From: Tranzscheliella williamsii
Taxonomy: Eukaryota > Basidiomycota > Ustilaginomycetes > Ustilaginales > Ustilaginaceae
Direction: 5' to 3'
Length of the DNA: 64,000 bases
Assembly (NCBI GenBank): GCA_023212725.1
Contig: JALBYF010000068.1
Coordinates: forward strand, 31,638-95,637
The translations under genes and the position numbers were made by a program. The notes under the pieces are model-generated. The model worked only from the letters and a program-made list of their open reading frames with translations, searched no databases and was not told where the DNA came from. Within the stretch, counting starts at the first letter, position 1. Each line of letters begins with the position of its first letter. Shown here in pieces: positions 46,902-63,924 of this stretch.

Positions 46902-48014
46902 CTATAGTGCATGTGCGTGTGGCAGGGGCCGCTCGTGAACGCTGGGCGGAAAGGTGGGCGAGTGGTGGGACGAATTCAAGGAGGCGGGCGGGGATTCGGC
47001 GCCAGGGCTGGCGGTGCTGGGGGAGGGATAGCTGTGGCAGGAAGGAAAGTGTTTTTCGAGCTGCTTCTCGAGCAGGCGCTCCGGGTCGGGGGGCGGGGCT
47101 GGGGTGTACTTGTTGTTGAGGAAGTCCTCTGCGCAGTAGATGGTGCGGACGGCGGCGATGGGGTTGGCCATGAACGCGATCGGCGAGGGGATGTGGGAGA
47201 GGATGGGGTCTTCTACCACGAGTTCGATGATAAAGCACGCGGCGTTGGCCAGGACGGCGATGGTGAAGAAGAGGAGCGAGGTCCGGAAGAGGTAGCGGCG
47301 GACGTTTGCGTTGGTGCCGAGCGAGTAGGTGGTGCGGGTGGACAGTTTGCGCAGGCGGTGCAGGGAGACGGCCAGGATCGCCGTGTCGAAGACCAGGCAA
47401 ACCCCCCAAGCGAATGCGCGGAAGCGGGTATCCGGTGCCGGCTGGCACCAGGGCAACGGCGTAGGGACGTCTGCGATCTTGACGACGCGGTACTGCACCA
47501 CATCGTAGACCCAGCCGACAAGAGCCAGGACCCAGAGGACGGAAAAGGAAACGAGCACCCGCCGGCTCTGGTCGCAGATCAGGTAGATCCGCGTGACAAA
47601 GATGGCCGCCGACGACATCCAGCAGACGGCAAAACACGCCCAGACGACTGCGAATGTCGCCATGCAGTCGTCTGGCCTGCCAAAGTAGAAGTAGAGCGTG
47701 GCGATGCTGGAGCCCATCAGCGAGTAGCGGATGATCAGCACCAGGATGCGCGCTATCGGGGTTGTGTAACTGCGGCGGCGCGCTGCTGCCTCGTCCTCTG
47801 CGGTCCCGCGCAGCGTTACCCAGCTCAACCGCCGCTCCAGCTTGCCGCCCGCGGCCCCCGCCCCACTCTTGCGCGCCACCAGCTGCACCAGCTGCCGCCA
47901 CGTCCGCATCTCCATCGGCAGCCAGATGAGCCACTCCCACAGCGCCACCACCGTCGCCATCAGCGTCACGTACCGCAGCACCTGCAGCTTGTAGTCTTCA
48001 TCCCAGCCCGCCAT
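46902..48014 (-). CDS. DUF6533-like multi-pass membrane protein
   Basis: 370 residues from the ATG at 48014; the frame is open further upstream but without an ATG. The N-terminal segment (YKLQVLRYVTLMATVVALWE followed by WLIWLPMEMRTW) matches my memory of the DUF6533 domain common in basidiomycetes: first helix, then an acidic residue and Trp before a charged loop. About six more hydrophobic helices follow, giving a seven-helix, GPCR-like topology (for example ILVLIIRYSLMGSSIATLYF, VLVSFSVLWVLALVGWVYDV, LFRTSLLFFTIAVLANAACF). The last ~65 residues are a Pro/Ser-rich cytosolic tail. Biochemical function of the family is unknown. It is next to, and co-oriented with, the P450, so it may be part of the cluster or its left border. 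It converges with the antiporter. Confidence 0.75.
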   Translation of the reverse strand: MAGWDEDYKLQVLRYVTLMATVVALWEWLIWLPMEMRTWRQLVQLVARKSGAGAAGGKLERRLSWVTLRGTAEDEAAARRRSYTTPIARILVLIIRYSLMGSSIATLYFYFGRPDDCMATFAVVWACFAVCWMSSAAIFVTRIYLICDQSRRVLVSFSVLWVLALVGWVYDVVQYRVVKIADVPTPLPWCQPAPDTRFRAFAWGVCLVFDTAILAVSLHRLRKLSTRTTYSLGTNANVRRYLFRTSLLFFTIAVLANAACFIIELVVEDPILSHIPSPIAFMANPIAAVRTIYCAEDFLNNKYTPAPPPDPERLLEKQLEKHFPSCHSYPSPSTASPGAESPPASLNSSHHSPTFPPSVHERPLPHAHAL

Positions 48015-48816
48015 TATGCCCACATCCAACGTTGCGTCGACAGTCCGAAGCGAGTATCCAGCAGCCCGTAGCCGGTAGTCTACAGCCAAGTTCGATTAGC
48101 GTAGAGACCGATTAGCGTAGAGAGACAGGAGCAAGCAGCTAGTCCAGATTAGCGTAGAGAGATAGCAGCAAGTAGTGGTGGCGGTAGTGTGAGGTGGCCG
48201 AGGTAGCCGTGTCAAGGCAGCGCAGGGTCGAGCGCCAGAGTTGCTATATAGGGTTGCGGTGGTGCTGCGAAACCGCGGCGATCATGCGGCGAGGACACAT
48301 GCACTGGCACGGTGTTTGGAGCGGAGGGCCGTGCGGAACGGGTCGACGTGGACAGGCGTGCGCGGCGGCATCAGGGGCAGGCTAGTGGCGCACTAGCAGC
48401 GCCAGGGCGGCGGAGAGTTTGGTATGCGCTGCAGGGCGGCAGGAACGCTGGCTGATAAGGTGCGTCGAGCCGAAGCGGTCCCAACTAACTTCCGAACTCG
48501 GCCACCCAGGAGCGGCTTTGGGCCCGCACCCAGGTAAGTGGCTTGCGAAGATGCCGGCCATGACGCTATGCCGCGGCCCATGCTCTGCGGCTCCGAGTCT
48601 CGCCCACGGCGCTCCTATGCACAGTCCGTGGCGCTACTATGCGCAGACCGTCCGGTGCAGTTCGTGTGATTTTCGGCGCGACGTGGCTACAGGCTGGCTG
48701 GAGTGGGGGCGCCCACGCGACGACGCACGCGGCACGCGAACGGAAGCGGCATACTGGCGGGCGCGAACACGGCAGACGATCAGCTTAGACCAGCAAGGCC
48801 ACGGCAGCAGCGGGAC
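48015..48816. other. Promoter region with tandem repeat
   Basis: Upstream of the DUF6533-like gene and downstream of the P450 stop. Three copies of gattagcgtagaga lie at about 48094-48165. A TATA-like ctatataggg sits at about 48243-48252 on the plus strand. No gene. Confidence 0.5.
48094..48165. repeat. Three copies of gattagcgtagaga
   Basis: Two copies are nearly adjacent (about 48094 and 48109), the third about 40 bases on, just upstream of the DUF6533-like start codon. They could be promoter elements or a simple repeat. Confidence 0.8.
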
Positions 48817-62151: not shown

Positions 62152-63924
62152 ATGATCATGTCTACACCGGCCATGACTGGCCAGAGCGTTTTCCCCTCTG
62201 CGCCCAGCAGCAGCTTGTCCACAGTGGCGGAGGATGCGGATGGCAACGGGCCCTTCTACTTTTGCAATTTCTTGCAGGCTGGCTCCTACGGGGGCCAAAC
62301 CAACGACGATGCGTCGCTGGCCGGCTCTTCGCTGGGCTACGATGCGCGCCACACGATGACGGCCACCTCGTCGGCGTTTGGCGATGCTTCCGATGGCTGG
62401 TCGTCGTTTGGCATCGCTTCGCGTCCGCAGACTACGGGGCTTTCCCCGCTCTTTGCGTACAGCGACCACCACGAGCAAGATCCGCTCGGCGAGATCCAGT
62501 CGAGCTTTGCCGACTGTCTGCTGCCGTCGACGGCGGGGTCGCTCGGTTACGGCAGCCCGGGCAGATCACAGCCCTTGGGCAGCTTTGCCGACTTTGCGCG
62601 GATGGATACAGCGGCGCCGCTGCCGCCGTCGTGTACGTGCGCCGCGCATCCGCATGTCGCCGCCCATGCCGGTGATACGCCCGCAGGCTGGGCGCAGGGA
62701 CTCCCCGTCGTGGGCGACGCGCTTGTGACGGCGCAGGCGGACACCGTCGGCGGCGCGCAGCTGGACAGCAAGTACGACCTACCCGCAGACAGCCTGGCGA
62801 CGTGGCTGCAGCACGATGTCCTCTCGGATCTGGTCAAGGACGACATAACGGCCACGGCTGGGTTTGGAGAAGCAGACGGAGCGGTTGCGGTCGGGGCGTT
62901 GGGCGAGAGCAAGGGGCGGCGCAATGCCATTGCGCTCATGCCCATGGTCATCTCGTCCGGCCTGCTGTATGCGATCGTCTCGAACGACCTCGAGGGAAGC
63001 GTGGGCTCGCCCGAGTCGGCATCCGTCTCCTCCTCGTCCGGCGACGAGATGGACGAGGCAGTGGCCGTCTCGCCACGCAGCTGTCCGCTCTCGCCCCAGC
63101 CGCGCCTCTCCTCGCGCTCCGCATCGTGTGGCTCCGCTGACCTCCCGCCAATGCATCGGACACTCTCGTCGTGGAAATTTGCGCCGCCTCGTCGCAGACG
63201 TCGCAGCAAGAGCACCGGGGTACCCTCGGGCAAGCTCGACCCGCTCGCCGCAGCCAGCGCGCGCAGGCGGGTGCGTGCCTCGCGCGCCGGCTCGCTAGAG
63301 CAAGCCGACCGCACCCCCGCCCCTTCTCCCCCACCGCACCACGACGAGCCGGTCGACCCCACCACGGCGGGCCCACCACTCAAAGCACAACGCAAGCCAG
63401 CTCCGCTGCACGTCAGCAACGGCAAGGGGTTTTCCATCAGCAGCCGCATCGTCCTGCGCGCGCGGCCCGGTGCCGCCGACGAGGAACTCCCCTACCCCGC
63501 CCTCTCGGACACACTCGAGGAAGCACAGCGCAACCAGGGCCCGCCACCCAGCGCCGAGGTAGAGCACAGCCAGAACCTCTTCCCCTCGGACCTATACGCG
63601 CCGCGCTTCACCCGCCGCGGCCCCAGCGGCCGCGAGGGCTGGTGCTCCCTCTGCCCGCAAGGCGAATGGTACTCGATGAAACGCAGCCAGTACCTCTACC
63701 ACATGCAGTACGACCACGGCATCAGCAGCCTCACCCGCAAACCCTTCCACCCGCCCAACCACATCCGCATCTGGAACGACGCCGTCCAGAAGACAGAGGG
63801 CCTCTGCCACCATTGCCACCTATGGGTCCCCATCTGCTTCGGCCCCGCCCGCAAGCGCGACTTCAAGGCCTGGTTCAAACACGCCCGCAAGTGCCACCGC
63901 GACAGCACAGGCTGCCCCATCTAG
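62152..63924 (+). CDS. Rua1-like transcriptional regulator
   Basis: 590 residues, intronless; ATGs at 62152 and 62158. The C-terminus (about 494-590) matches the domain named after Rua1, the activator of the ustilagic acid cluster in Ustilago maydis: GWCSLCPQGEWYSMKRSQYL, then H-M-x-x-D-H-G-I, FHPPNHIRIW, and a second Cys/His group GLCHHCHLWVPICF and WFKHARKCH. These cysteines and histidines probably bind zinc in C2H2-like fashion. The N-terminal 480 residues are Ser/Ala/Asp-rich with a basic RRRRRS-like patch near 350 and are likely activation and nuclear-import sequence. As a regulator at the end of a biosynthetic gene group, it is the natural pathway-specific activator; this is inference. 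Sequence after the stop codon is a C homopolymer, so the 3' side is unknown. Confidence 0.85.
   Translation: MIMSTPAMTGQSVFPSAPSSSLSTVAEDADGNGPFYFCNFLQAGSYGGQTNDDASLAGSSLGYDARHTMTATSSAFGDASDGWSSFGIASRPQTTGLSPLFAYSDHHEQDPLGEIQSSFADCLLPSTAGSLGYGSPGRSQPLGSFADFARMDTAAPLPPSCTCAAHPHVAAHAGDTPAGWAQGLPVVGDALVTAQADTVGGAQLDSKYDLPADSLATWLQHDVLSDLVKDDITATAGFGEADGAVAVGALGESKGRRNAIALMPMVISSGLLYAIVSNDLEGSVGSPESASVSSSSGDEMDEAVAVSPRSCPLSPQPRLSSRSASCGSADLPPMHRTLSSWKFAPPRRRRRSKSTGVPSGKLDPLAAASARRRVRASRAGSLEQADRTPAPSPPPHHDEPVDPTTAGPPLKAQRKPAPLHVSNGKGFSISSRIVLRARPGAADEELPYPALSDTLEEAQRNQGPPPSAEVEHSQNLFPSDLYAPRFTRRGPSGREGWCSLCPQGEWYSMKRSQYLYHMQYDHGISSLTRKPFHPPNHIRIWNDAVQKTEGLCHHCHLWVPICFGPARKRDFKAWFKHARKCHRDSTGCPI

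What the first reader, a model, noticed from the sequence alone, without database searches (positions are those of the whole stretch)
46902..63924. Candidate new metabolite cluster: ammonia-lyase + ANL ligase + DMATS prenyltransferase + P450 + hydrolase + Rua1-like regulator
Seen: five consecutive minus-strand genes (prenyltransferase, ammonia-lyase, ligase, P450, DUF6533-like) plus a hydrolase and a Rua1-domain regulator, with no PKS or multimodular NRPS. Known: PAL plus CoA-ligase pairs make cinnamoyl starter units in some fungal pathways, and DMATS enzymes prenylate aromatic rings. Having all of these together in a smut-type genome under a Rua1-like factor is a combination I do not know. 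Inference: product is a prenylated, oxidised arylacrylic acid or ester.
Basis: partly seen in the sequence, partly recalled or inferred. Interest (0 to 1): 0.88.

Follow-up and report, generated by a model that had tools for sequence, protein, structure and literature searches.

The report
Smut-fungus lyase–prenyltransferase gene cluster
A fungus related to corn smut carries a compact set of genes, built around an unusual ammonia-releasing enzyme and a prenyl-attaching enzyme, that probably makes a small prenylated aromatic compound, and these two genes also seem to sit together in two other sequenced sources.

Summary
The seven genes are real and open at the stated place, bordered left by ordinary housekeeping-type genes and right by the contig end. 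The ammonia-lyase is not the genome's phenylalanine ammonia-lyase (PAL), which lies on another contig. It belongs to a separate lineage with Ustilago maydis UMAG_06509, Violaceomyces palustris and an unnamed contig's protein, with Ceraceosorus as sister. It keeps the MIO catalytic residues, but the usual ring-selecting residues seem replaced. The prenyltransferase is the only DMATS gene found in the genome and keeps its phosphate-binding residues. For 2 of 5 DMATS relatives (V. palustris and one unnamed contig) a lyase of this clade lies on a contig of the same length, so the pair looks like a conserved unit. The ligase has only three relatives found. [quoted passage not shown] Most likely mechanism: DMATS prenylates a free aromatic amino acid, the lyase removes ammonia, the ligase activates the acid, the peroxisomal hydrolase releases it, the P450 oxidises it. 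Substrates, product, regulation and membership of the membrane protein are inferred. The 'DUF6533' label found no support.

The parts
46902..48014 (-). 370-aa membrane protein of unknown family, 6 predicted TM segments; possible sensor, transporter or passenger
   Evidence: ORF and hydropathy; 0 Pfam families at E up to 10; only itself found in the genome at E up to 0.01
48687..51117 (-). Cytochrome P450, 10 exons, 576 aa, with CPGE haem-region motif; I-helix reads AGTHT
   Evidence: Spliced; PF00067 E 2.3e-68
51535..53524 (-). AMP-binding (ANL) ligase, 3 exons, 606 aa, motifs SSASTGEPK and TTHKGNLRR
   Evidence: Spliced; PF00501 E 5e-7; three relatives of 47-49% identity; in the genome only its own three exons matched a relative
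54066..56273 (-). MIO-type aromatic amino acid ammonia-lyase of a lineage apart from PAL, single exon, 735 aa
   Evidence: PF00221 E 7e-113; alignment A3; trees; two lyase genes in the genome
56722..58002 (-). DMATS-type aromatic prenyltransferase, single exon, 426 aa
   Evidence: PF11991 E 4e-48; only match in the genome; five relatives; conserved active-site residues
58003..58833 (.). Divergent intergenic region between the DMATS and hydrolase genes, the likely two-way promoter
   Evidence: Coordinates; contains ACCCAGG and GCACCCA
58834..60406 (+). Alpha/beta hydrolase, 463 aa, intron 59510-59690, GHSFG, ends in SKL (peroxisomal signal); nearest solved relatives MpaH' and Lpx1
   Evidence: Spliced; PF12697 E 2e-13; MpaH' E 1.6e-5, Lpx1 E 3e-5
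62158..63924 (+). Rua1_C-domain regulator (in-frame ATG codons at 62152 and 62158), 76 bp from the contig end
   Evidence: PF14616 E 1e-18; one of four Rua1_C matches in the genome; start codons

Best explanation
This is a biosynthetic gene cluster with a conserved two-enzyme core. Inferred route: (1) the DMATS enzyme prenylates a free aromatic amino acid, tyrosine or tryptophan; (2) the MIO ammonia-lyase, whose pocket differs from PAL, removes ammonia from the prenylated amino acid to give a prenylated arylacrylic acid; (3) the ligase activates it as adenylate and CoA thioester; (4) the SKL-tagged hydrolase cuts the thioester in the peroxisome, perhaps after beta-oxidative shortening to a prenylated benzoic acid; (5) the P450 oxidises ring or prenyl group. 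The Rua1-like factor may switch the genes on. Shown here: gene content, conserved catalytic residues, a distinct lyase lineage, and lyase and DMATS relatives on contigs of equal length in two other sources. Inferred: substrates, order of steps, product, regulation, inclusion of the membrane-protein gene.
For: Lyase and DMATS relatives lie on contigs of identical length in two other sources: 104,981 bp for V. palustris (P0001, P0008) and 24,298 bp for an unnamed assembly (P0003, P0007). The lyase clade of 4 rows has support 98/96 and is joined by Ceraceosorus with 100/100, on a branch of 1.7 changes per column from the other 39 rows. Its ASG motif and the Tyr, Asn, Arg and Glu columns (catalytic roles recalled) are invariant in 11 of 11 rows. 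The PAL selectivity pair, His-Gln or Met-Gln in 8 of the 10 rows outside the clade, aligns to Lys-Ser here, Arg-Ala in three relatives and Asn-Gln in two Ceraceosorus rows. DMATS E102, R118, K198, Y200, R268, K270 and Y272 are invariant in 6 of 6 rows and match FgaPT2 E89, R100, K187, Y189, R257, K259 and Y261 (alignment; numbers recalled). Nearest solved DMATS are named as tryptophan or cyclic-dipeptide prenyltransferases. The hydrolase is nearest to MpaH' and Lpx1 and ends in SKL. No second DMATS or ligase was found in the genome. All 7 genes have GC3 of 0.80-0.89, against a median of 0.70 in 34 sampled frames.
Against: No chemistry, expression or substrate data. Only 2 of 5 DMATS relatives share a contig length with a listed lyase; the other three (longest contigs 25,408, 3,396 and 9,499 bp) match none of the 120 listed of 464 lyase hits. 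None of the three ligase relatives lies on a contig of 104,981 or 24,298 bp. In a smaller tree of 16 rows the support for the 4-row lyase clade falls to 91/91. Homology to MpaH' is weak (E 1.6e-5) and covers about 140 residues. The alignment at the lyase pocket is uncertain: one search places it differently from the reading first made by eye and rests, like, on one program. The DMATS misses the NCBIfam DMATS subfamily cut-off (143 of 164 bits). GC3 is also high in genes outside the cluster (prenylcysteine-lyase-like 0.89; C91 PAL 0.83).
Confidence: 0.45

Rival explanations
1. One reading: the lyase acts as an ordinary PAL or TAL to give cinnamic or coumaric acid, the ligase makes the CoA ester, and the DMATS then prenylates the ring.
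For: PF00221 membership and conserved MIO residues; phenylalanine ammonia-lyase is its best NCBIfam model.
Against: Below the PAL equivalog cut-off (416 of 519 bits) while 4 of 4 fungal PAL-type proteins exceed it; separate lineage; altered selectivity region; a PAL-type gene is already present on C91.
Confidence: 0.25
2. The MIO enzyme is an aminomutase that makes a beta-amino acid, which the ANL ligase adenylates for amide formation.
For: MIO aminomutases share fold and residues; aminomutase models also match, though far below cut-off.
Against: Best model is a lyase; no carrier domain or amide synthase appeared among the seven genes.
Confidence: 0.1
3. Only the lyase-DMATS pair is a pathway; ligase, P450, hydrolase, membrane protein and regulator are chance neighbours.
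For: Only the lyase-DMATS pair was seen on contigs of equal length elsewhere; the ligase turned up in S. graminicola on a contig of 582,987 bp, a length that no DMATS or listed lyase hit has.
Against: Three further biosynthetic-type genes within about 13 kb, beside a border with genes of ordinary type; shared high GC3; the ligase belongs to a narrow family with one named relative, from a smut.
Confidence: 0.15

Closest known systems
Fungal phenylalanine ammonia-lyase (nearest solved: PDB 1y2m)
   Same: Fold family, MIO motif and catalytic residues
   Different: 32-35% identity to the PAL-type rows listed, separate clade, YGxNIPFG in place of YGxxTGFG-type sequence, selectivity pair replaced, extra residues after it
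DMATS prenyltransferases (DMATS1, GliD1, FgaPT2)
   Same: PF11991 domain, pyrophosphate-binding and E89-type residues
   Different: Own lineage (closest relatives 39% identity); fails the 4-DMATS model TIGR03430 and the subfamily cut-off of TIGR03429
Mycophenolic acid cluster (peroxisomal acyl-CoA hydrolase MpaH; PMC11934065, passages seen)
   Same: Hydrolase similarity, peroxisomal signal, and a CoA-ligase step (in that pathway the ligase gene is outside the cluster)
   Different: No polyketide synthase seen here; lyase present; prenyltransferase of DMATS type (that of MPA is of another type, recalled)
Ustilagic acid cluster with Rua1 (PMC7673458, passages seen)
   Same: A Rua1_C regulator within a smut metabolite cluster
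   Different: Different enzymes; no glycolipid genes among the genes I examined here
Strobilurin-type PAL plus CoA-ligase starter pathways (recalled)
   Same: Ammonia-lyase plus acyl ligase
   Different: No PKS seen; DMATS present; lyase not a PAL by score or tree
NRPS-Indole-t1PKS hybrid cluster of U. trichophora (PMC5897528, passage seen)
   Same: May contain a DMATS gene: antiSMASH's 'indole' label is given for such genes (recalled)
   Different: Has NRPS and PKS; no lyase mentioned in the passages seen; its genes were not compared here

Membership tests
Fungal PAL (TIGR01226) | Score above the curated equivalog cut-off (519 bits) | tested here: not met
   416 bits; controls 667-805 bits for 4 of 4 fungal PAL-type proteins, while P0006-P0009 score 370-409. 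The C91 gene itself was not scored
Fungal PAL (TIGR01226) | Places inside the PAL clade of its own order | tested here: not met
   Groups with UMAG_06509 and V. palustris; the C91 gene groups with PALs of Kalmanozyma and Testicularia
MIO aromatic amino acid lyase superfamily (PF00221) | Domain score and ASG plus catalytic Tyr/Asn/Arg/Glu | tested here: met
   378 bits against 27.3; columns invariant in 11 of 11 rows
MIO aromatic amino acid lyase superfamily (PF00221) | Ammonia elimination from a named amino acid | not testable with these tools
   Needs an enzyme assay
DMATS prenyltransferase (PF11991) | Domain score | tested here: met
   165 bits against 25
DMATS prenyltransferase (PF11991) | Pyrophosphate-binding Arg/Lys/Tyr residues | tested here: met
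   R118, K198, Y200, R268, K270, Y272 invariant in 6 of 6 rows
NCBIfam DMATS subfamily (TIGR03429) | Score above 163.85 bits | tested here: not met
   143 bits, E 1.5e-41
Tryptophan 4-dimethylallyltransferase (TIGR03430) | Equivalog score of 741 bits | tested here: not met
   21.7 bits
ANL (AMP-binding) ligase | PF00501 above cut-off | tested here: inconclusive
   29.3 bits against 29.9; relatives P0126-P0128 are listed with PF00501; no solved relative found by profile at E up to 1
Peroxisomal acyl-CoA hydrolase (MpaH'/Lpx1-like) | Sequence match, GHSxG, PTS1 end | tested here: met
   Weak match (E 1.6e-5 and 3e-5, about 140 residues), GHSFG, SKL end
Peroxisomal acyl-CoA hydrolase (MpaH'/Lpx1-like) | CoA-thioester hydrolysis | not testable with these tools
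   Needs an assay
Rua1-type regulator | Rua1_C domain | tested here: met
   68 bits against 27
Rua1-type regulator | Controls the genes beside it | not testable with these tools
   ACCCAGG lies in 5 of 6 intergenic regions, but simulations make it weak
DUF6533 proteins | Pfam match | tested here: not met
   0 families at E up to 10

The most novel reading that the evidence does not exclude
The cluster defines a new natural-product logic in smut fungi: a MIO lyase specialised for amino acids that a partner DMATS has already prenylated, with a basic residue replacing the ring-recognising residue of PAL, feeding a peroxisomal ligase-hydrolase pair. The pair spread or persisted outside the species tree, by transfer or by ancient duplication and loss.
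Probability: 0.3. Interest if true: 0.8.

Novelty: new variant of a known kind. Interest (0 to 1): 0.58.

Why it matters
PMC5897528 (passages seen) reports few metabolite clusters in smut genomes, around ten each, with terpene, NRPS and PKS types in all species studied. A cluster built on a lyase and a DMATS would escape scans for PKS and NRPS alone. It also flags UMAG_06509 of the model smut U. maydis as a probable non-PAL lyase in a tractable genetic system: UniRef names it phenylalanine ammonia-lyase and NCBI calls it uncharacterized; score and tree here speak against PAL. The lyase's altered pocket makes a direct biochemical test possible.

Tried and rejected
Rejected: 'the lyase is the housekeeping PAL'. 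Rejected: DUF6533 label. Tried: a shared promoter word. ACCCAGG lies in 5 of 6 intergenic regions, not in the ligase's. It looked rare against a small background; against the wider genome sample one word passes the looser rarity limit where simulations give 0.11 on average, and none the stricter one, so I do not rely on it. Tried: foreign origin from composition. All seven genes have high GC3, but some genes outside the cluster do too. Tried: structural class of the ligase by profile against solved structures, no match at E up to 1. RNA families in 46000-64000: none at gathering scores. Repeats: only short ones.

Papers: no paper in the library holds UMAG_06509 or um06509. Searches joining DMATS or prenyltransferase words with smut, Ustilago, basidiomycete or ammonia-lyase words and PAL or TAL words with Ustilago gave 5, 1, 1, 1, 6 and 4 papers; by their titles and abstract beginnings none describes such a cluster, and I opened none of them. 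One search listed 10 papers on Ustilaginomycotina and metabolites, of which I searched three (PMC9172201, PMC5897528, PMC4246466); with PMC10098057 these four main texts gave 0 occurrences of prenyltransferase or prenyl, and of DMAT (passages only). PMC5897528 does mention an NRPS-Indole-t1PKS cluster in U. trichophora, which may hold a DMATS gene. The library is partial.
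Full report
What is there. The window is the last 64 kb of a 95.6-kb contig (C101) of an 18.18-Mb, 135-contig genome. From the left the window carries genes of ordinary type: a cyclophilin-WD40 protein, Ufd2, a prenylcysteine-lyase-like protein and the large subunit of ribonucleotide reductase, then what looks by eye like a cation exchanger at 42417-46742 (no domain search). From 46.9 kb on, seven genes of another kind follow up to the contig end. 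Five are on the minus strand: a 370-aa membrane protein, a ten-exon P450, a three-exon AMP-binding ligase, a single-exon ammonia-lyase and a single-exon DMATS prenyltransferase. Two are on the plus strand: an alpha/beta hydrolase with one intron, and a Rua1_C regulator. Introns were placed by eye. After the regulator's stop come 76 bases, nearly all C, and the contig ends, so more genes may follow.

Which organism. The second lyase of the genome, on contig C91, is 84-87% identical to PALs of Pseudozyma flocculosa, Kalmanozyma brasiliensis and Testicularia cyperi, 83% to that of Thecaphora frezii and up to 89% to unnamed ones, and groups with Kalmanozyma and Testicularia. So the genome is of the smut order Ustilaginales or close to it (placement of these genera recalled). 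I could not name the species.

The lyase. It has the PF00221 domain, the MIO ASG motif and the catalytic residues (roles recalled). But it scores 416 bits on the PAL model, under the cut-off of 519, while 4 of 4 fungal PAL-type proteins tested score 667-805; the three clade relatives and Ceraceosorus P0009 also fall short, at 370-409. In a tree of 45 rows (2 own genes and 43 of the 120 listed hits, which had 464 in all) it groups with U. maydis UMAG_06509, an unnamed contig's protein and V. palustris (98/96), then with two Ceraceosorus proteins (100/100), on a branch of 1.7 changes per column. In a tree of 16 rows the 4-row clade has 91/91. In an L-INS-i alignment the residue pair that selects the ring in PAL and TAL (role recalled) reads His-Gln or Met-Gln in 8 of the 10 rows outside the clade, His-Leu in Cronartium, Asn-Leu in P0011, Asn-Gln in the two Ceraceosorus rows, Lys-Ser in this lyase and Arg-Ala in the other three. 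The loop is poorly conserved and followed by extra residues, so another register is possible and this point is a lead, not a result.

The DMATS. It is the only match in the genome. Only five relatives turned up among 8000 scored candidates, one named (V. palustris) and four unnamed, at 38-39% identity. The phosphate-binding residues and the glutamate that contacts the indole in FgaPT2 are invariant in all six rows and line up with FgaPT2 (role and numbers recalled). The solved structures that matched are named as tryptophan or cyclic-dipeptide enzymes, which favours a free amino acid or similar as substrate. It misses the cut-off of the NCBIfam DMATS subfamily (143 of 164 bits) and is far from the ergot-type tryptophan 4-DMATS model.

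Conserved clustering. P0001 (DMATS) and P0008 (lyase) of V. palustris both lie on a contig of 104,981 bases; P0003 and P0007, unnamed, both on a contig of 24,298 bases. Identical lengths make the same contig very likely, though I could not open these contigs. This is the strongest evidence that the lyase-DMATS pair is a functional unit. It holds for 2 of 5 DMATS relatives; for the other three no lyase of equal contig length is among the 120 listed. U. maydis gave a lyase hit but no DMATS hit under its name, and the ligase, found in S. graminicola and two unnamed sources only, was not found on either shared contig.

Ligase, hydrolase, P450, membrane protein, regulator. The ligase has AMP-binding motifs but is far from known families (best Pfam 29.3 bits; no solved relative by profile), and no second copy was found. 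The hydrolase is nearest to MpaH', the peroxisomal acyl-CoA hydrolase of mycophenolic acid synthesis, and to Lpx1, both weakly, and ends in SKL (the pathway role of MpaH from passages of PMC11934065). One of three ligase relatives, P0126, ends in SHL, a PTS1-like end; the window's ligase does not, nor do the other two. This suggests a CoA-thioester stage in the peroxisome, no more. The membrane protein has no family. The regulator is one of four Rua1_C matches; its control of the cluster is unproven.

History. In the lyase tree this gene falls outside a clade of V. palustris, U. maydis and the unnamed contig (100/100), although V. palustris is in another order, Violaceomycetales, and this genome's PAL is of Ustilaginales type (the PAL of V. 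palustris was not in the tree). Holding this gene together with the U. maydis and unnamed rows is rejected (AU p 0.0014); the group was chosen after I had seen the first tree, which weakens the test. The DMATS identities point the same way (40-45% to all five, against 46-57% among the five). Long branches and odd composition (flagged) could mislead, so transfer, old duplication with loss, or fast evolution all remain open. GC3 is 0.80-0.89 in all seven genes, against a median of 0.70 in 34 long frames that passed a crude coding filter in 15 sampled stretches (3 of 34 at 0.80 or more), but the C91 PAL is 0.83 and the prenylcysteine-lyase-like gene 0.89.

Verdict. A real and probably functional metabolite cluster whose lyase-DMATS core looks conserved. 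The exact product is open; a prenylated arylacrylic or benzoic acid is my best estimate. I found no description of such a cluster in the held library (searches; mostly listings), which is only part of the literature.

Noticed in passing
63928-64000: The contig ends in a run of about 70 C directly behind the regulator gene, probably an assembly or sequencing artefact rather than a telomere.
   Followed up: partly
49671-49690 (end of a P450 exon, minus strand): The P450 I-helix reads AGTHT, with His where most P450s have Asp or Glu (consensus recalled).
   Followed up: no
50962-51020: A 15-bp repeat codes a Thr-rich stretch at the N terminus of the P450 model; the true start may lie elsewhere.
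   Followed up: no
48094-48175: Three copies of GATTAGCGTAGAGA-type repeats just upstream of the membrane-protein gene.
   Followed up: no
48504-48528, 51181, 51204, 56521, 58416, 60751: ACCCAGG, often near GCACCCA, recurs in 5 of 6 intergenic regions of the cluster; weak statistically but a candidate regulator site.
   Followed up: partly
54066-56273 (lyase): The lyase tree conflicts with the expected species tree: the V. palustris gene is nearer to U. maydis than the window's gene is (AU p 0.0014, group chosen after the first tree).
   Followed up: partly
26857-28680: A prenylcysteine-lyase-like oxidase gene with GC3 of 0.89, unlike most of its neighbours; it lies outside the cluster.
   Followed up: no
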